Program-made: the position numbers and the translations under genes
Assembly: GCF_008727925.1 (NCBI RefSeq)
Contig: NZ_VTWT01000002.1
Coordinates: forward strand, 186,001-250,000
Direction: 5' to 3'
Length of the DNA: 64,000 nucleotides
Source: Adhaeribacter soli
GTDB taxonomy: Bacteria; Bacteroidota; Bacteroidia; Cytophagales; Hymenobacteraceae
Part shown: positions 941 through 8,577 of the stretch, piece by piece
Position numbering within the stretch: position 1 is the first letter of the stretch
How the letters are laid out: every line of letters starts with the position of its first letter
The notes under the pieces: model-generated
What the model was told of the DNA's origin: nothing
Database searches by the model: none
Seen by the model: the letters and a program-made list of their open reading frames with translations, nothing else

Positions 941-3433
941 TTAAAATTCAATGCGGTAATTCAGCACCGGAATAAGGCCGGTCTGGGTGATGGTTTTCAC
1001 TTCTTTCAGGTCCTGGTCATAAAACTGGCGGTACACGTTCAGGCGGTTGGTTACGTTCTGAATATCCAGGGATAGAACATACGAAGCCCTGGGTTTGTTT
1101 TTACGGTAACTTACCCGGATATCGGTACGGAAATAATCTTCGGCCTGCTTTGCGTAACTTTCCTTTTCCAGGTAAACCGCATGGCCTTCCTGAATCGACT
1201 TTTCCTGATCTATCGGGGTGTAGCGGTTGCCGCCAGCCCAGAGTAACCGAATATTAGCGCCGATCTGGTTGGTTTTTTCGGCACCTACTTTAAACTCCTT
1301 CCCTCCTACTACATTCAGAATATGGTTGCCGTTGAAGCGGGTGTTTCGTTCGATGCCATCGGCGGCGGTGTATCTGGAATTGTAAAGCGAACTGGTGATC
1401 AGGAAATAAATATTATTGGTGAAGAATTTTTCCAGGCTGAGTTCCAGTCCGTAATTCCGGCCGGTGCCCTGGCTAACCAGGCTGTCGGTGATAAATCCAT
1501 CTTCGGCATTCAGGGCGGCAAAGGAGCTTTTCGGGTCGGCGCCAATGGCTACATCGTAGAGCTGCTGGTAATAAGTTTCGGCTTTGAAACGGAGGTCTTC
1601 GCGCAGCATCTGATCGTAGGAAAGTACGAAATGACGGGCTTTGGTAAGTTCCAGGTTTTTGTTGAACTGGCTGTACTGTCCGTTTGCCAGTGGCTGCCGG
1701 GCAAAGTAAACGGCCATGGATTCGTGGCGGCTGTGCACGCCGAAAGCGGCTCCCAGGGCCTGCGTTGAAGAAAAATTCCAACGCAAGCCTAAGCGTGGTT
1801 CTACGGAAGTGTTGCCGTTCAGCCCCAGCCGGATAACGTGGAGCCCGGAATTCAGCGTCACGTTTTCCAGAATGCGGTATTTCCACTGTCCGTAGGTTTG
1901 TACAATGCCGGTAGCGCCGTCGTTATCCATGTAGCGCTGAAAAACCTTGTCTTCGTTCCGGCCTTCGCTGAAAAGGTCGAAACCCAGTCGGCTGTAAATA
2001 GCTCCGAAACGGATGGTGTGCTGATTGCTGAGCTTATGGTTATAAAGGGTAGAAACGCGGGCCGAGGTATTCCGGAATTCTTCCTGGTAAAAAGTGGTGG
2101 CTTTAAAATCGGTGCCGATGGAATCGTAGTAATATTTGTTGAAGTTGCCGGAAAGGGAAAGTACGGTTTCTAGGTAGGCGTTCGGGTTCACAAAGTAAAC
2201 GTGCGACAAGCCGGCCGCGCCCATTCCTGCCCGGAAAACATCATCAAAGCGATCCCTTTTCTCTACCCATTTGGAAGCATCCCGTTCGGCTTCGGCCACT
2301 TGAGAACTATAGCCGCCAAGCCCCCACACTGAAAACGTTCCGGCTTTAGCTGTTGGCAGGTGCATTTTAAAAGCCAAGTCCTGAAAATCCGGAGCAGCAT
2401 CGCCGGCAATTTTCACCCCGATTTTGTTCAGAATAGCTAAGGTAGAATAACGGTAGTTAGCCAGGTATGAGCCTTTTCCGCCTTCTTTAAACGGACCTTC
2501 GGCCGCAAAATCTACTCCCAGCACGCCGGCCTGAAAAGCATATTCCCGTTTCTCGTTATTGCCTTTCCGGAGCTTCATATCGAAAATTCCGGATAAGGCA
2601 TTACCGTATTCCGCCGGAAAAGCGCCGGTGTAGAAATCGGAATTATCGAGCATGTTCACGCTCAGGATGCTTACGCCGCCGCCGGAAGCTCCCTCCTGGC
2701 CGAAGTGACTGGGGTTTGGAATTTCCACGCCTTCCATGCGCCAGAGTACGCCCTTCGGAGAATTGCCGCGCACTACAATTTCATTACCGCCATCGTCTAC
2801 CGAGGCTACGCCGGCATAATTCAGGGCGGCGCGGGCCGGATCGTTGACGCTGGCGGCATAGCGTTTGGTTTCTTCTACCGAAATGGAGCGGGCGCTGAGC
2901 GTAGCCATTTCGTTCAGGGGCTGGCCTTTCTCCTGCTTTGCCCGCACCACTACTTCGTCCATTTCTTTAAAGGTTTCGGTAAGGCCGATGGAAAGCACCA
3001 GTTCTTTGCCGGAGCCCAGCAATAATTCCGAGATCACCTGTTCTTCGTAGCCGATGTAATTCACTTTAAGGGTATGGCGACCTACCGGCACTTTCTCGAT
3101 CCGGAAATTCCCGTCCAGGTCCGTTAAAGTTCCTTTCATGGGGTTGGTGGTTGTAACGGCTACCGAGGCTCCGATCACCGGGCTTTGCGATTCACGATCG
3201 ATGATGCGGCCGCGGATGGTTTGCGTCAGGCTCTGGGCTCGGAGCTGAAAAGGAAAAATCAGGAATAACAGGCAGGCCACTGCGACAAGAGCTTTCGGGT
3301 TTTTAGGGCTTTTTGTTACCGTTTTCCGGGCATTTGTTTCGAATTGCAGGCGGTACTCCTGCTGCGCCTTTTCCCAACCGGCAAAGTAATCGCGGATGTG
3401 CGTTGCTTTGGAAAAAAATGATTTCTGCTTCAT
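941..3433 (-). CDS. TonB-dependent outer-membrane receptor with carboxypeptidase-regulatory-like domain
   Basis: An 830-residue TonB-dependent receptor for energised uptake across the outer membrane; ligand unknown. It has a hydrophobic export segment at about residues 48-66, a CarboxypepD_reg-like beta-sandwich (about 70-165, IRGRIIDRESQSPVIGAS), a plug domain (about 175-290, with EIVVRGNSPKG and GIFDMKL) and a 22-strand-type barrel ending in aromatic LNYRIEF, the usual outer-membrane insertion signal. It has no STN domain of its own; the separate gene upstream on the same strand (3798-5633) carries one. The export segment is preceded by about 47 charged residues with no internal ATG, an unusually long signal-peptide n-region. 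It is the last gene of the sigma/FecR locus, after a 364-base gap that could hold its own promoter. Confidence 0.9.
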   Translation of the reverse strand: MKQKSFFSKATHIRDYFAGWEKAQQEYRLQFETNARKTVTKSPKNPKALVAVACLLFLIFPFQLRAQSLTQTIRGRIIDRESQSPVIGASVAVTTTNPMKGTLTDLDGNFRIEKVPVGRHTLKVNYIGYEEQVISELLLGSGKELVLSIGLTETFKEMDEVVVRAKQEKGQPLNEMATLSARSISVEETKRYAASVNDPARAALNYAGVASVDDGGNEIVVRGNSPKGVLWRMEGVEIPNPSHFGQEGASGGGVSILSVNMLDNSDFYTGAFPAEYGNALSGIFDMKLRKGNNEKREYAFQAGVLGVDFAAEGPFKEGGKGSYLANYRYSTLAILNKIGVKIAGDAAPDFQDLAFKMHLPTAKAGTFSVWGLGGYSSQVAEAERDASKWVEKRDRFDDVFRAGMGAAGLSHVYFVNPNAYLETVLSLSGNFNKYYYDSIGTDFKATTFYQEEFRNTSARVSTLYNHKLSNQHTIRFGAIYSRLGFDLFSEGRNEDKVFQRYMDNDGATGIVQTYGQWKYRILENVTLNSGLHVIRLGLNGNTSVEPRLGLRWNFSSTQALGAAFGVHSRHESMAVYFARQPLANGQYSQFNKNLELTKARHFVLSYDQMLREDLRFKAETYYQQLYDVAIGADPKSSFAALNAEDGFITDSLVSQGTGRNYGLELSLEKFFTNNIYFLITSSLYNSRYTAADGIERNTRFNGNHILNVVGGKEFKVGAEKTNQIGANIRLLWAGGNRYTPIDQEKSIQEGHAVYLEKESYAKQAEDYFRTDIRVSYRKNKPRASYVLSLDIQNVTNRLNVYRQFYDQDLKEVKTITQTGLIPVLNYRIEF

Positions 3434-3797
3434 AGTTTTTTAGACAATAAGGTTTCGGTAACAGCTGAAGGGCTGTTTTAAATAGTTTTAGCAGGAAAAT
3501 TTTGTGGGTGTTTTTGGGGAGGGAATTACCCTCCGGAGCAGGTTGTAGGTTTAGAAAGAGATGAGCGGAACCCACCCCTGGCCCCTCCGGGGAGGGGAAT
3601 TGTTTATCATCTTTAATTGTATCGCACAGGCCAAGGCATTGCTACCATTCTTTCATTCAACTTCTATTTGACCTGCAGTAGTTTTTTTGTGGCTACTCCT
3701 CACTGATTTACAAACTTCAGATCATTCGTAGGTCCAGGTTTCCGCTCCGCTCAAACTTGAACCAGCAAAAAGATTATGAATTAATTACCTGAATATT
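3434..3797. other. Gene-free gap with short repeats
   Basis: No credible gene. It holds a small GC-rich hairpin near 3574-3597 (CCCCTGGCCCCTCC and its partner) and one copy of a dispersed repeat at 3698-3764. Confidence 0.6.
3698..3764. repeat. Dispersed repeat, copy 1
   Basis: About 67 bases, from CCTCACTGA through TTCAGATCATT and TAGGTCCA to GCTCAAAC-TGAACC. A diverged copy lies at 47432-47500. Both are intergenic and neither encodes a protein. Confidence 0.75.
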
Positions 3798-5633
3798 CTA
3801 GAACCGCAAGCCGGCGTTGAAGCCGATCCACATTTTTACGTTGGTGCCGTTTTTGGAAGTATGATTGTAGAAGGTATTGTTTGCCAGGGTAGAACCTACG
3901 TTTTCGGAGCCTTTTTCCTGGTACCGCGATACGGAAACGTTGTAGGTAGGGCCGCCGAAAATGGCAAAGCGTTTGGCAAGCTGAATGGTGCCCAGGAGGC
4001 GGAATTTATTCAGCAGGTTCAATTCGTAATCTTCGTACAGGCCATCCGGAATATTTTTGTAGCTTTCTTCTACCACGTAGTAAGACAAGATATCAGTGTT
4101 CAGTTTCAGGCGCTTGCTCATGGCCCACTCCGAACCGAAACCGAAGCCGTAACCCCAGCGGTGTTTGTCGTTCAATTCTGCCCCTAAGGCCAGCAAGGTA
4201 TGGAATTTCGGCACTCCGATCTTAAAAGTAAAGTTGGCATCGAAGTCGTCGGCGGCATAAAATTCGGCTCTTTTGTAACCGCCTTTGTTCACGAAATTAA
4301 AAACCCCGATCGGTACGCCGGCGGCGCTGTCGGCAATGTTTATGAAAGCGATCTGAGTGCCTTTGGCACATCTGGCAATGTTGAGGAAACCGGCAGCCTG
4401 CACGCCGGAAACGGTATCGGCAATGTTTAAAAACCCGGCTAACTGAGCGCCGTCTACGTTTTTCGCCAGGTTCATATAGCCTGCACCCTGGGCGCCGTTC
4501 ACATTTTTAGCAATGTTCAGGAAACCGGCAAACTGTCCCCCGTTTATATGGCCTTCCGTTACGTTCATGTACCCGGCAAACTGTCCGCCTTTAATATTGC
4601 CGCCGGCGAAATTTATAAAGCTGCCAAATTGCCCGCCTTGTACCGCATATCCTTCGTTGCGCGTTGCAGCAAGTTCCCGGAGATCGGCACGGTGCTTCAC
4701 CACGTTAAAGAATCCGCTGAACTGCACTCCTTTCACGTACCCCTGTTCCAGGTTCCCGAAACCCGCAAACTCTACCCCTTCCAACGCGGCCGAAGTACCG
4801 GCCAGCAAATGTACCGATGTACGGTTCACGTAGCGGTTGGCAGCTGTTCCGTTGGTGCTGATGGGGAAAATAATGCCCAGGTGCGTATCGGTATACAGGA
4901 TGGAGTCGGAATTGGAGGCTCTTACTTCGTTGTTTAGGCGGGTGGCTCGCAACTTATCCAGGATCGTTTCTTTTTTCTCTTCGGCAGGGTTAGCGGCGCT
5001 GGTTTCACTTACGTTTTCACCGGCAGGTACCGCACTTTTTACTTCAAGTTCAGTAGCCTTTTCGGCAGCTTGTTCCGGTTGGGTTTCTGGTGTTGCAGTA
5101 TTTACAGTTCCGGAATTTGTGGTAGTGGCAGACGTTTCTTTTACCGAAGTTTCTTTTGCTGACGTCTCTTTTGCCAATGTTTCTTTTGCGGTAGTTTCTT
5201 TTGCCGTGGCCTGATTTTCCGGTTGCGGATGGGTTACCGTTTTGGCCGTCTGACTGGCTTTGTTTTCGGTAATCGAAGTTGGCAGTTTCTGGAAAGTGGT
5301 GGCTTTGGGTTTGTTCTTGGGAAACCCTTTTTTGATGATGATCTGCCCGTTTACCTGTTTGTAGCCCATGTCAGTTTTTTCCAGCAGCACATCCAGCACT
5401 TCGGATAAGGGCTTGTCTTTTACTTCGGCCGAAAATCTGGTTTTAGCCGGCAGTTCGTTGTTTAAATAGGAAAAACGGTAGCCGTATTTTTTCTGAATTT
5501 GTTGCAGCACTTGCGGCAGGGTGGCGTCTTTTACCTGAAGCGAAACTTTGGTATTCAGGTTTTGCGCCAGTAGCGTTTGCATTGAAAAAATAAGGCAAAG
5601 TACTCCCGTAATGAAGAAGCGTATAGTTCTCAT
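3798..5633 (-). CDS. STN-domain protein fused to LA_2272-like surface repeats
   Basis: A 611-residue exported protein: signal peptide (1-24), STN (secretin/TonB short N-terminal) domain at about 25-103 (VSLQVKDATLPQVLQQI), a Lys/Glu/Thr linker with five KETxA repeats (about 142-168), a linker to about 225, then tandem 20-22-residue repeats of the form GxQxAGxxNIA (about 285-435), and a C-terminal beta-rich region ending in GFNAGLRF. The repeats resemble the LA_2272 surface-repeat family. STN domains normally sit at the N-terminus of transducing TonB receptors and contact the FecR periplasmic domain. Here the gene starts 28 bases after the fecR-like stop, so the two are surely co-transcribed. 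I infer an outer-membrane or surface-linked signal transducer. The fusion is unusual. Confidence 0.8.
   Translation of the reverse strand: MRTIRFFITGVLCLIFSMQTLLAQNLNTKVSLQVKDATLPQVLQQIQKKYGYRFSYLNNELPAKTRFSAEVKDKPLSEVLDVLLEKTDMGYKQVNGQIIIKKGFPKNKPKATTFQKLPTSITENKASQTAKTVTHPQPENQATAKETTAKETLAKETSAKETSVKETSATTTNSGTVNTATPETQPEQAAEKATELEVKSAVPAGENVSETSAANPAEEKKETILDKLRATRLNNEVRASNSDSILYTDTHLGIIFPISTNGTAANRYVNRTSVHLLAGTSAALEGVEFAGFGNLEQGYVKGVQFSGFFNVVKHRADLRELAATRNEGYAVQGGQFGSFINFAGGNIKGGQFAGYMNVTEGHINGGQFAGFLNIAKNVNGAQGAGYMNLAKNVDGAQLAGFLNIADTVSGVQAAGFLNIARCAKGTQIAFINIADSAAGVPIGVFNFVNKGGYKRAEFYAADDFDANFTFKIGVPKFHTLLALGAELNDKHRWGYGFGFGSEWAMSKRLKLNTDILSYYVVEESYKNIPDGLYEDYELNLLNKFRLLGTIQLAKRFAIFGGPTYNVSVSRYQEKGSENVGSTLANNTFYNHTSKNGTNVKMWIGFNAGLRF
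5131..5205. repeat. Five tandem 15-bp units inside the STN gene
   Basis: Five imperfect 15-base units (core GTTTCTTTTGC on the plus strand) encode the K-E-T-x-A pentapeptide repeat in the linker of the STN protein. Because the unit is a multiple of three, copy-number change would keep the frame. Confidence 0.85.
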
Positions 5634-5661
5634 TATATAATTTTTAATTTTATAAAGTTCG

Positions 5662-6669
5662 TTAATTACATCCCTGACCGGAGATCAAGTACCGGTCGCC
5701 GTTTTTGGTGATCTTCAGATTGCCTGTAGCGGCCAGCACTTCCAATACTTCGTTTAATTCCGGATCCTGGAAAGAAGTGGTGAAGCGGCAGTTGCGTAGG
5801 GCATCGTTTTGAATGATAATGGTAATGTTAAAATAGTGTTCCAGTTCTTTGGTTAATTGTTCGAGCTGTAAATTGGTAAAAGCTAAGTTCTTTGTTTTCC
5901 AAGCCTGGAAATTTTTACTTTCTATTACTTTTTTAGCCGGAACGGTACCGTTTTCTTTTAAAACCCCTTCCTGACCCGGCACCAGGAAAATGGCATCGTC
6001 GGTTTCGGTGCGGGCAAAAGCCACTTTCCCGGTTACTACCTGCACCTTTACTTCTTTTGCATCGTAGGCCCGGAGGTTGAAGGAAGTGCCGATCACTTCG
6101 GTTTTCGTGCCCTGGGCGAAAATGGTGAAACGTTTGCCTTCGGCTTTGGCGACTTCAAAAAAAGCTTCGCCGGTTAGTTTTACAGTCCGGTTTTCCTTCT
6201 GAAAATTCTCCGGATAAGAAAACGTACTGTTCTGGTTCAGCGAAACTTTACTGCCATCGGCTAGCATGATGGTTTTGGTTTCGCCGGCGGCCGTTCTTAC
6301 TTCTGTCCAGTTTTGCGCCGGCGTACGGGTCAGGAAGTAAAAGCTTACCATAATGAACAGGGCGATGGAAGCGGCAATGCCGTACATCGGGCCGCGGTTC
6401 ATTTTCCGGACAACCGGCGCTTTCGGCGATTCGGCTTCGCGGGCCTGCACTTTCATCCGGAAGCGCTGCCAGCCTTTTTCCACGTCGGGTTCGTAGTTAT
6501 CTGAAGGCAAGGCGATGCCGGACCAGACTTTTTGAGCCTGTTTTAGTAGCGATTCCGCTTCCGGATCCTGTTCCCGCTGCTGCCGGAGCCAGGCCTGGTC
6601 TTCTTCCGGGGCATTTCCGCTGACGCCGGCTGCCAGCTTTTCCCAGAATTTTTCCCGCTTGTCTTCCAT
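5662..6669 (-). CDS. FecR-family anti-sigma factor
   Basis: A 335-residue inner-membrane anti-sigma factor that would hold the ECF sigma factor at the membrane and release it on a signal from the outer membrane. The cytoplasmic N-terminal helical part contains EDQAWLRQQREQDPEAE; one transmembrane helix lies near residues 95-113; the periplasmic FecR domain follows (WTEVRTAAGETKTIMLADG, VKLTGEAFFEV), then a C-terminal DUF4974-like domain (FTNLQLEQLTKELEHYFNI). A TTG lies two codons upstream; ATG at 6669 is preferred. It sits between the GIN-domain gene and the STN gene, which starts 28 bases downstream. Confidence 0.93.
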   Translation of the reverse strand: MEDKREKFWEKLAAGVSGNAPEEDQAWLRQQREQDPEAESLLKQAQKVWSGIALPSDNYEPDVEKGWQRFRMKVQAREAESPKAPVVRKMNRGPMYGIAASIALFIMVSFYFLTRTPAQNWTEVRTAAGETKTIMLADGSKVSLNQNSTFSYPENFQKENRTVKLTGEAFFEVAKAEGKRFTIFAQGTKTEVIGTSFNLRAYDAKEVKVQVVTGKVAFARTETDDAIFLVPGQEGVLKENGTVPAKKVIESKNFQAWKTKNLAFTNLQLEQLTKELEHYFNITIIIQNDALRNCRFTTSFQDPELNEVLEVLAATGNLKITKNGDRYLISGQGCN

Positions 6670-6834
6670 TTTCAATTATTAAACAAATAAAGGCGCTTCG
6701 CGCAATTAAAAATTAGAAATTACTTATCAGGTTGATTCGGTAATACTCTAAACCTGTTCTAAAATTTAATTAGCGGAGCAAACCACAAAAGTAAATTTTA
6801 TTTTCATTCACTTTTAATGGCATGTCGCAAGGCA

Positions 6835-7563
6835 TTAATCTACCTTACTGATGCTGCCGCTGCCCGAAACGGAGGAATTTTCCGCCGGATTGCCTTTGTA
6901 ATAAACCTTGCCGGAGCCGCTCACTTGCGCTGAAAGCTTTTCGATAGCCATAACTTCTGCCCTGCCGGAACCGCTGATGCCGATATCGGAGATTTTAGTA
7001 GTGAAACCGAAGGCTTTTAACTTGCCGGAACCGGAGATTTCCAAGTCGTGGGTGCTGGCATCGCCGTAGTAGGTTATTTCGCCGGAGCCGGAGATGCGGG
7101 TTTGTACATCGGCGGCCCCTTTCAGGGTTAGATTAACCGTGCTGCTGCCCGAAGTACTTACTTTAAAATCGTTTACCTGCCAGTCGGTGGCGCCAATTAC
7201 CCGGTTCGCACCCGATAAATTTATTTCTTTCAGGTTCGGCGTGGAAAGGTACACCCGCACTGGCTCGTCGATCTTTACGTTGTCTTTGTTGAATTCAATT
7301 TTCAGTTCGTTGTTGCGGGTAGTAGTAATTACTTCGGCCAAAACGTTCTCCTGACCTTCCAGTTTAATATCCTGCGCTGGTCCCTGGGTTAAATAAATCT
7401 CGAACTCACCGCCCACGCTAATGGCCTCGTAAGTGCCAACGGTCCGGGTTTTGGAAATGATGTCGCCTTTGCCGCGCAAAGTTTCTTTGTTGCAGGAAGT
7501 AAAAGCAAAGGCAGTAAGTAAAAGGCAAAATGCCAGGTAATTTCTGAAGAAAGAATATTTCAT
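6835..7563 (-). CDS. Head-GIN domain (DUF2807) lipoprotein
   Basis: A 242-residue lipoprotein: hydrophobic leader with lipobox FTSC (Cys about 24), then a right-handed beta-helix-like head-GIN/DUF2807 domain. The region is rich in ISGSG steps (ISGSGEI, ISGSGKL, ISGSGRA, VSGSGKV, VSGSGSI), each marking a turn. Such proteins are exported to the Bacteroidota cell surface or periplasm; their ligand is unknown. It lies between the ECF sigma gene (113 bases upstream) and the anti-sigma gene (about 165 bases downstream), all on one strand. That position is not the usual one, so it may be a regulon member or part of the sensing complex (inference). Confidence 0.87.
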   Translation of the reverse strand: MKYSFFRNYLAFCLLLTAFAFTSCNKETLRGKGDIISKTRTVGTYEAISVGGEFEIYLTQGPAQDIKLEGQENVLAEVITTTRNNELKIEFNKDNVKIDEPVRVYLSTPNLKEINLSGANRVIGATDWQVNDFKVSTSGSSTVNLTLKGAADVQTRISGSGEITYYGDASTHDLEISGSGKLKAFGFTTKISDIGISGSGRAEVMAIEKLSAQVSGSGKVYYKGNPAENSSVSGSGSISKVD

Positions 7564-7676
7564 TTTATCTTAGTTTTTAAGTCCGTTCTGGTAAGTCTGA
7601 AGAAGCCGGCGCCGGGTGTCTTCCCCTATAAAACATTTTCCCTATCCTCTACCCTACCATGCATCTGAAAAAAAAA

Positions 7677-8258
7677 TTAAAATAATTCTGAGATCAGAAG
7701 CAAAAGCAGCCCTACGAGGTATTCTTTCAGGTTTTCGCGGAGCCGCTGCAGGGCAATGCCCATGTGTTTTTCGACTGATTTCACCGAAACTTCCAGCCTT
7801 TCGGCAATTTCTTTGTAACTGAGTTCTTCGAAACGGCTCAGGGAAAATACCAGTCGGGTTTTAGGCGGAAGGCTGTCGATGGCCTGCAGAATTTGCGTTT
7901 CGGTTTCGAGCAAGTTCAGATTCTTTTCGGCCGTTTCGCCGCCGGCCAGTACCATTTCCAGCGGATCGATATCGGTATTCTTTTTTTGCTGCTTCAGGAA
8001 ATTCAGGGCGGTGTTGTAGCAGGAACGGTACAGGTAGGCCTGCATGGCGGCATCGAGCTGCAGGGTTTCGCGCATTTCCCATACTTTCATAAATACCTCC
8101 TGCACAATATCTTCGGCAAAACTGGCGTCGCGAAGAATGCGGTAAAGACTCTTACACAGACCCGCGTAATATTGCCGGAAAAGCATTTCTACTTTCTCTT
8201 CCGGGCTTAAATTCTGGTAAAACGACACTGCCTTGGCGACAGGTTTTTCTACTTCCAT
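7677..8258 (-). CDS. ECF RNA polymerase sigma factor (Bacteroidota sigma-70 family)
   Basis: A 193-residue ECF sigma factor with region 2 (FAEDIVQEVFMKVWE, about 47-61) and a region 4 helix-turn-helix (LSYKEIAERLEVSVKSVEKH), joined by a short linker. It ends in a hydrophobic stretch (LVGLLLLLISELF) that is longer and more hydrophobic than usual and might touch the membrane or the anti-sigma factor. As the first gene of the minus-strand locus it should direct transcription of the genes that follow, held in check by the FecR-like protein. The promoter is not resolved. Confidence 0.93.
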   Translation of the reverse strand: MEVEKPVAKAVSFYQNLSPEEKVEMLFRQYYAGLCKSLYRILRDASFAEDIVQEVFMKVWEMRETLQLDAAMQAYLYRSCYNTALNFLKQQKKNTDIDPLEMVLAGGETAEKNLNLLETETQILQAIDSLPPKTRLVFSLSRFEELSYKEIAERLEVSVKSVEKHMGIALQRLRENLKEYLVGLLLLLISELF

Positions 8259-8577
8259 TACAAGGGCTGCAAAACTTCCGCAAAAGTATTCTATTTTCTT
8301 TTAAAAGCCTGCTGAAATTGTGGGTTGTCTTTCATAATTTAATTAGTTGTTCTGGGGAGTTTTTCTGCCTGAAAAGCTACTGTTTTTCATAGCTGGCATT
8401 CTTTATCAGTAGCTGAAGTATTTCATTTCTCTTCCTATTCTTTTGTTCCCGAAAAACCACTGGGTGTTCCAAATGAAAAATAACTGCCCCTTCCCTCCTT
8501 TGTCGGGACAGGCTCTTGAAAAGGAGGGGAGCTCTACACTGCGAACTTCCCGCTATTCTACATCAGGTTGGGTATTG

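What the first reader, a model, noticed from the sequence alone, without database searches (positions are those of the whole stretch)
941..8258. Surface-signalling locus with the STN domain moved off the receptor onto a surface-repeat protein
ECF sigma, FecR anti-sigma and a TonB receptor form the classic trans-envelope signalling trio, but the receptor lacks an STN domain. STN instead heads a separate protein whose C-terminal half is GxQxAGxxNIA surface repeats (LA_2272-like), and its gene starts 28 bases after fecR. A GIN-domain lipoprotein is also interposed between sigma and fecR. Together this suggests a variant in which a repeat-rich surface protein, and not the transporter, signals to FecR. 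This is the best candidate here for an undescribed system.
Basis: partly seen in the sequence, partly recalled or inferred. Interest (0 to 1): 0.66.

Follow-up and report, generated by a model that had tools for sequence, protein, structure and literature searches.

The report
FecR signalling without a TonB transporter
In this Adhaeribacter bacterium and many of its relatives, the outer-membrane half of a classic surface-to-gene switch appears to be not a nutrient transporter but a small repeat-bearing outer-membrane barrel on a long flexible tether, a widespread and apparently undescribed variant of a known signalling system.

Summary
Minus strand: ECF sigma (7677-8258), GIN/DUF2807 lipoprotein (6835-7563), FecR with STN-like C-terminus (5662-6675), STN-repeat protein (3798-5633, 28 nt after fecR), STN-less TonB receptor (941-3433). 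The repeat protein is STN, a disordered tether of about 170 residues, 15/16-residue repeats and a C-terminal 8-stranded OmpA-like outer-membrane barrel, with no plug. A query lacking STN finds relatives in 75/295 genomes of the class and 86/194 of the order. STN-bearing members directly follow fecR in 91/96 cases, STN-less members in 0/40 (p=3e-29). About half of the loci have no TonB receptor nearby, and none of those receptors carries STN. A few loci fuse the same repeat barrel to a membrane-anchored N-terminus behind the sigma gene, the Dma layout. A promoter-like element, unique in the genome, precedes GIN in nine of nine close relatives. Best reading: FecR-type surface signalling whose outer-membrane partner is a tethered repeat barrel instead of a TonB transporter. 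'STN moved off the receptor' is not supported: the arrangement is old and standard for this family. The STN-FecR contact, signal and regulon are inferred, not shown. New variant of a known kind.

The parts
7677..8258 (-). ECF sigma factor (193 aa)
   Evidence: TIGR02985 9e-45, Sigma70_r2/r4
7626..7658 (-). promoter-like two-block element GGTAGGGT-N15-TGTTTTATAG, 62 nt before the GIN start codon; inferred target of the sigma factor
   Evidence: conserved without mismatch upstream of GIN in 9/9 close relatives while flanking intergenic DNA diverges; single copy in the 4.97 Mb genome at up to 2 mismatches; 0.05 expected by chance in the window at up to 3
6835..7563 (-). GIN/DUF2807 lipoprotein (242 aa); recurrent member of these loci
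   Evidence: PF10988 1e-44; GIN gene near 40/103 repeat-protein loci against about 3.5 per genome
5662..6675 (-). FecR-type anti-sigma regulator: cytosolic N-terminus, TM helix about residues 98-116, periplasmic FecR domain 125-218
   Evidence: PF04773 6e-18; TM read from the sequence
5683..5886 (-). STN-like C-terminal domain of FecR (FecR_C, residues 264-331), part of the expected docking site
   Evidence: PF16344 4e-16; docking role from the PupR:PupB crystal structure (PMC7186176)
3798..5633 (-). STN-tether-repeat-barrel protein (611 aa), proposed outer-membrane partner of FecR
   Evidence: 91/96 relatives with STN directly follow fecR
5328..5552 (-). STN domain, residues 28-102
   Evidence: PF07660 7e-11; AF2 pLDDT mostly 64-82; the model's best match is the PilQ N0 domain and the PupB signalling domain (9cuv) is also listed (all E above 0.001)
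4770..5327 (-). low-complexity, predicted disordered tether, residues 103-288
   Evidence: AF2 pLDDT 21-40 over most of it; spacer between STN and repeats 100-250 residues, median 141, in relatives
4314..4730 (-). array of 15/16-residue GxQxAGxxNxA repeats, residues 302-440
   Evidence: number of repeats mostly 4-11 in relatives
3801..4283 (-). C-terminal 8-stranded OmpA-like outer-membrane beta-barrel, residues 451-611
   Evidence: AF2 pLDDT mostly 68-85 with lower loops; VIA-align Z 11-13 to OmpA, OprF, NspA and designed TM barrels; C-terminal Phe; alternating hydropathy z=3.0
941..3433 (-). TonB-receptor-like protein (830 aa) with CarboxypepD_reg and weak plug, no STN; frequent but optional neighbour
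   Evidence: CREG-TBDR present in 53/103 loci

Best explanation
The locus is a FecI/FecR-type cell-surface signalling system whose outer-membrane partner is a non-transporter. The STN-repeat protein is exported, its C-terminal 8-stranded barrel inserts in the outer membrane, the 16-residue repeat array is held there, and a disordered tether of about 170 residues lets the N-terminal STN domain reach across the periplasm and dock on the periplasmic part of FecR. A change at the outer membrane (ligand on repeats or barrel, or assembly stress) alters the docking, FecR is cleaved or freed, and the ECF sigma acts on the element at 7626-7658 to express GIN, fecR and the STN-repeat gene. Shown here: gene content and order, its conservation, the domain layout, the barrel fold prediction, the unique conserved element. 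Inferred from FecA/FecR, PupB/PupR and FoxA/FoxR: STN-FecR docking and proteolysis. Unknown: the signal, and whether TonB energy is needed (not expected, as there is no plug).
For: Adjacency: STN-bearing repeat proteins directly follow fecR in 91/96, STN-less ones in 0/40, Fisher p 3e-29; in the subset found with a query without STN 63/68 vs 0/34. TonB receptor optional: CREG-TBDR near 53 of 103 loci; none of those near repeat proteins carries STN. Own genome: two FecR, each with one adjacent STN protein. In a class sample of 80 genomes, 10 have a single FecR and in 8 of these it lies next to an STN-repeat gene. FecR lineages tend to keep their partner type: 4 label changes on the tree vs 14.3 when shuffled, 0/500 as low. 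STN co-diverges weakly with the periplasmic parts of FecR (partial Mantel 0.17 and 0.15; 1 and 4 of 300 permutations as high) but not with its cytosolic part (-0.01). Fusion evidence: in L051, L141, L147, L124 a repeat barrel is fused to an N-terminal segment plus TM directly behind a sigma gene. Barrel. STN resembles the PupB signalling domain and secretin N0. Promoter-like element. Docking precedent: PMC7186176, PMC11637429.
Against: No complex could be predicted, so docking is by analogy only. The Mantel signal is weak and distances are near saturation. The genome also holds an orphan STN-TonB receptor (L072) that could in principle contact FecR. Three STN-repeat genes lie in stretches without a detected fecR (L133, L145, and L137 near a contig end), one lies at a contig edge (L126) and one is a second tandem copy (L138). 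The full-length model is poor (pLDDT 44); only STN and barrel are credible, and topology (repeats outside or in the periplasm) is open. The element is conserved sequence, not a mapped promoter.
Confidence: 0.76

Rival explanations
1. The neighbouring TonB receptor (or the genome's orphan STN-TonB receptor) is the true transducer to FecR and the STN-repeat protein is a regulated output or adhesin with a relic STN domain.
For: A CREG-TBDR is a frequent neighbour (53/103 loci), and an orphan STN-CREG-TonB receptor exists elsewhere in the genome (L072).
Against: The neighbouring receptor has no STN and is absent from about half the loci, whereas the STN-repeat gene is next to fecR in 91/96. STN is kept across the class, and repeat proteins without STN are never next to fecR.
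Confidence: 0.12
2. A sub-version of the main mechanism that differs in the signal: the STN-repeat protein is a protector or envelope-assembly sensor. STN holds FecR uncleaved unless barrel assembly at the outer membrane fails, so the signal is folding or outer-membrane state and not a ligand.
For: FoxA signalling domain protects FoxR from proteolysis without signal (PMC11637429); Dma proteins, with the same tether-barrel plan, control outer-membrane vesiculation (PMC13088901); an element before GIN-fecR-STNrepeat suggests autoregulation.
Against: No direct data; variable repeat number fits ligand contact as well.
Confidence: 0.35
3. Operon neighbours without functional link: STN-repeat and fecR merely travel together.
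For: Bacterial operons can persist by shared regulation (general knowledge).
Against: Adjacency depends on the presence of STN (91/96 vs 0/40), STN being the known FecR-binding domain; the barrel is also fused to a membrane-anchored N-terminus behind sigma genes.
Confidence: 0.04

Closest known systems
FecA-FecR-FecI / PupB-PupR / FoxA-FoxR cell-surface signalling
   Same: ECF sigma, FecR-type anti-sigma with TM and STN-like C-terminus, outer-membrane partner beginning with an STN signalling domain, adjacent genes
   Different: The partner is not a TonB-dependent transporter: no plug, a small 8-stranded barrel, a long disordered tether and a repeat array. Whether TonB energy is needed is not known.
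[quoted passage not shown] PMC13088901)
   Same: Disordered tether and C-terminal outer-membrane beta-barrel linked to an ECF sigma factor in Bacteroidota. Some relatives of the window's repeat barrel (L051, L141, L147, L124) have the one-chain Dma layout.
   Different: In the window the chain is split: FecR is the membrane regulator and STN replaces the anti-sigma/TM head of the barrel protein.
Surface-repeat proteins
   Same: Weak match of the repeat region to VC2662_fam, E 0.0004-0.001, far below its cut-off
   Different: No STN or fecR link was tested for that family here; membership is not established.

Membership tests
FecR-type cell-surface signalling (CSS) | ECF sigma factor next to a FecR-type anti-sigma | tested here: met
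   GIN lies between them in the window, but sigma and fecR are direct neighbours in most other loci
FecR-type cell-surface signalling (CSS) | FecR with single TM and periplasmic domain ending in an STN-like domain | tested here: met
   PF04773 and PF16344; TM read from the sequence at about residues 98-116
FecR-type cell-surface signalling (CSS) | outer-membrane partner with N-terminal STN encoded next to fecR | tested here: met
   PF07660; predicted C-terminal OM-barrel fold; 28 nt gap
FecR-type cell-surface signalling (CSS) | the STN-bearing partner is a TonB-dependent transporter with plug | tested here: not met
   no Plug or TonB barrel family in the 611-aa protein; 8-stranded barrel
FecR-type cell-surface signalling (CSS) | physical STN-FecR interaction controlling proteolysis | not testable with these tools
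   complex prediction not available; weak co-divergence only
Dma anti-sigma family | anti-sigma domain and inner-membrane TM in the same chain as the barrel | tested here: not met
   window protein starts with a signal peptide and STN; TM and anti-sigma head are on FecR
Dma anti-sigma family | long disordered tether and C-terminal outer-membrane barrel | tested here: met
   (predictions)
Dma anti-sigma family | partner sigma of group ECF21 | not tested
LA_2272-type surface repeat | match to a curated repeat model | tested here: inconclusive
   only VC2662_fam, below its cut-off

The most novel reading that the evidence does not exclude
Bacteroidota use a common outer-membrane sensor module (16-residue repeats on an OmpA-like barrel with a long tether) that can be wired to ECF sigma factors in two ways, through STN docking on FecR or by direct fusion to a membrane-anchored anti-sigma head. 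This would be a TonB-independent branch of surface signalling in which the tether bridges the periplasm; its barrel family is present in about a quarter of the sampled genomes of the class.
Probability: 0.5. Interest if true: 0.75.

Novelty: new variant of a known kind. Interest (0 to 1): 0.62.

Why it matters
Classical surface signalling couples gene control to a TonB-dependent transporter, and how its signalling domain reaches the inner membrane is stated as an open problem (PMC11637429). Here the partner has a tether that may be long enough to cross the periplasm and no transporter at all, so recognition, energy input and docking can be separated experimentally. The same barrel appears in a Dma-like fusion, which links two signalling classes. 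Because the arrangement is common in this class of Bacteroidota, many fecR loci gain a concrete partner protein, and this one also a testable promoter element.

Tried and rejected
STN 'moved off the receptor': rejected; the STN-repeat architecture occurs across the class, and no receptor beside repeat proteins in these loci carries STN. Apparent fecR-less loci L040, L043, L053, L108: rejected; fecR is there but was masked by spurious ORFs. One antiparallel strand per repeat: not favoured, since repeat counts of both parities are equally common; a beta-solenoid is an alternative and the model does not decide. Full-length AF2 is too poor for conclusions beyond STN and barrel. The large alignment A1 could not be used to search named genomes; A2 gave five named loci. 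Literature searches for FecR with STN in Bacteroidetes found nothing relevant, and the 2024 PNAS Dma paper is not held, so the claim 'undescribed' is limited to this library. Standard sigma-70 promoter and terminator scans gave no more than chance.

Full report
WHAT IS THERE. The five genes are as described, all on the minus strand. FecR carries the FecR domain and an STN-like C-terminal domain. The next gene, 28 nt further on, codes for 611 residues: signal peptide, STN (28-102), a low-complexity tether, 15/16-residue repeats with the motif GxQxAGxxNxA from residue 302 to about 440, and a C-terminal domain ending in Phe. The TonB receptor has CarboxypepD_reg and a weak plug but no STN. By its nearest named relatives the genome is an Adhaeribacter (A. 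terrigena, rhizoryzae, aerolatus, aquaticus).

STRUCTURE. AlphaFold2 of the whole chain is poor (pLDDT 44), but STN is modelled with block means mostly 64-82, and the model's matches include PilQ N0 and the PupB signalling domain (no match reaches E 0.001). Residues 243-611 alone give an 8-stranded C-terminal domain, pLDDT mostly 68-85, which aligns with Z 11-13 to OmpA, OprF, NspA and designed transmembrane barrels. The C-terminal domain shows alternating hydropathy (z 3.0), and the chains of this family end in Phe in 85 of 136 cases against 13.7% of other proteins. The repeat region is not resolved: repeat numbers of both parities occur about equally, which argues against one antiparallel barrel strand per repeat.

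CONSERVATION. A profile of the repeat and barrel part only, without STN, finds relatives in 75/295 genomes of the class and 86/194 of the order. Of 136 repeat proteins in the fetched loci, 96 have STN; 91 of these directly follow fecR on the same strand. None of the 40 without STN does (Fisher p 3e-29; in the subset from the STN-free query 63/68 vs 0/34; four fecR genes were recovered by tblastn after spurious ORFs had hidden them, and one STN, L152, was assigned by eye). Related loci are not independent, so the p-value overstates the certainty, but the pattern holds across many families. Outside the class, the 13 fetched repeat proteins lack STN and fecR. About half of the loci have no TonB receptor within 5 kb; GIN is near 40 of 103 loci and a second repeat protein, usually without STN, in 25. 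With about 3.5 GIN genes per genome, roughly 1% would be expected by chance.

WHO TALKS TO FECR. The window's genome has two FecR proteins, one beside an STN-TonB receptor and one beside the STN-repeat protein, plus an orphan STN-TonB receptor. In a sample of 80 class genomes, ten have a single FecR and in eight it sits by an STN-repeat gene. Repeat proteins and FecR co-occur (17 both, 3 repeat only, 10 FecR only, 50 neither; p 6e-8). On a FecR tree the partner type changes 4 times against 14.3 in shuffles (quick tree). STN distances track those of the FecR periplasmic parts weakly but not the cytosolic part.

FUSIONS. L051, L141 and L147, and probably L124, have a sigma gene followed by a single protein with a short N-terminal segment, a TM helix, a long linker and the same repeat barrel; no Pfam family marks the N-terminal segment, so calling it an anti-sigma domain is inference from position and layout. 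This is the layout reported for Dma anti-sigma factors (PMC13088901). The barrel is thus tied to sigma genes in two ways.

REGULATION. In nine of nine close loci the sigma-GIN gap holds GGTAGGGT-N15-TGTTTTATAG with no mismatch, 62-83 nt before GIN. In the genome it occurs once at up to two mismatches; at three mismatches two further matches appear, and the reversed control pattern gives four. Degenerate copies precede fecR in L033, L034, L038, L039 and L136. The likely target of the sigma factor is therefore its own locus; this is inference from conservation.

MECHANISM. By analogy with PupB:PupR, where the signalling domain binds the periplasmic domain of the FecR-type regulator (PMC7186176), and FoxA:FoxR, where it shields the anti-sigma until the signal comes (PMC11637429), STN of the repeat protein should dock on FecR. 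The tether would give the reach that is a stated problem for FoxA. The signal is unknown: a ligand at the repeats, or the state of the outer membrane.

VERDICT. A real, widespread variant of FecR-type surface signalling with a non-transporter partner; it is not an ordinary member of the transporter-coupled family because the TonB-transporter feature was tested and not met. Searches of the open literature library found no description, but that library is partial.

Noticed in passing
L064:4985-7684 (G040): A close relative of the window's TonB receptor that does carry an STN domain but has no fecR or sigma gene beside it.
   Followed up: partly
L072 (G000:C10 about 451800): Orphan STN-CarboxypepD-TonB receptor in the window's own genome, downstream of an ftsY-like gene, without FecR.
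   Followed up: partly
L185-L187, L199 (other classes of the phylum): STN-less repeat barrels in genomes outside the class, often two matches per genome and not near fecR or sigma; role unknown.
   Followed up: partly
L138:4320-8578: Tandem second copy of the STN-repeat gene behind one fecR.
   Followed up: no
window 3540-3600 and 8500-8540: CCCCTCC..GGAGGGG inverted-repeat-like elements in intergenic DNA on both sides of the locus.
   Followed up: no
L166, L184 (G128, G088): FecR followed by an STN protein with neither CarboxypepD nor repeats detected in the part seen: perhaps a further class of FecR partner.
   Followed up: no
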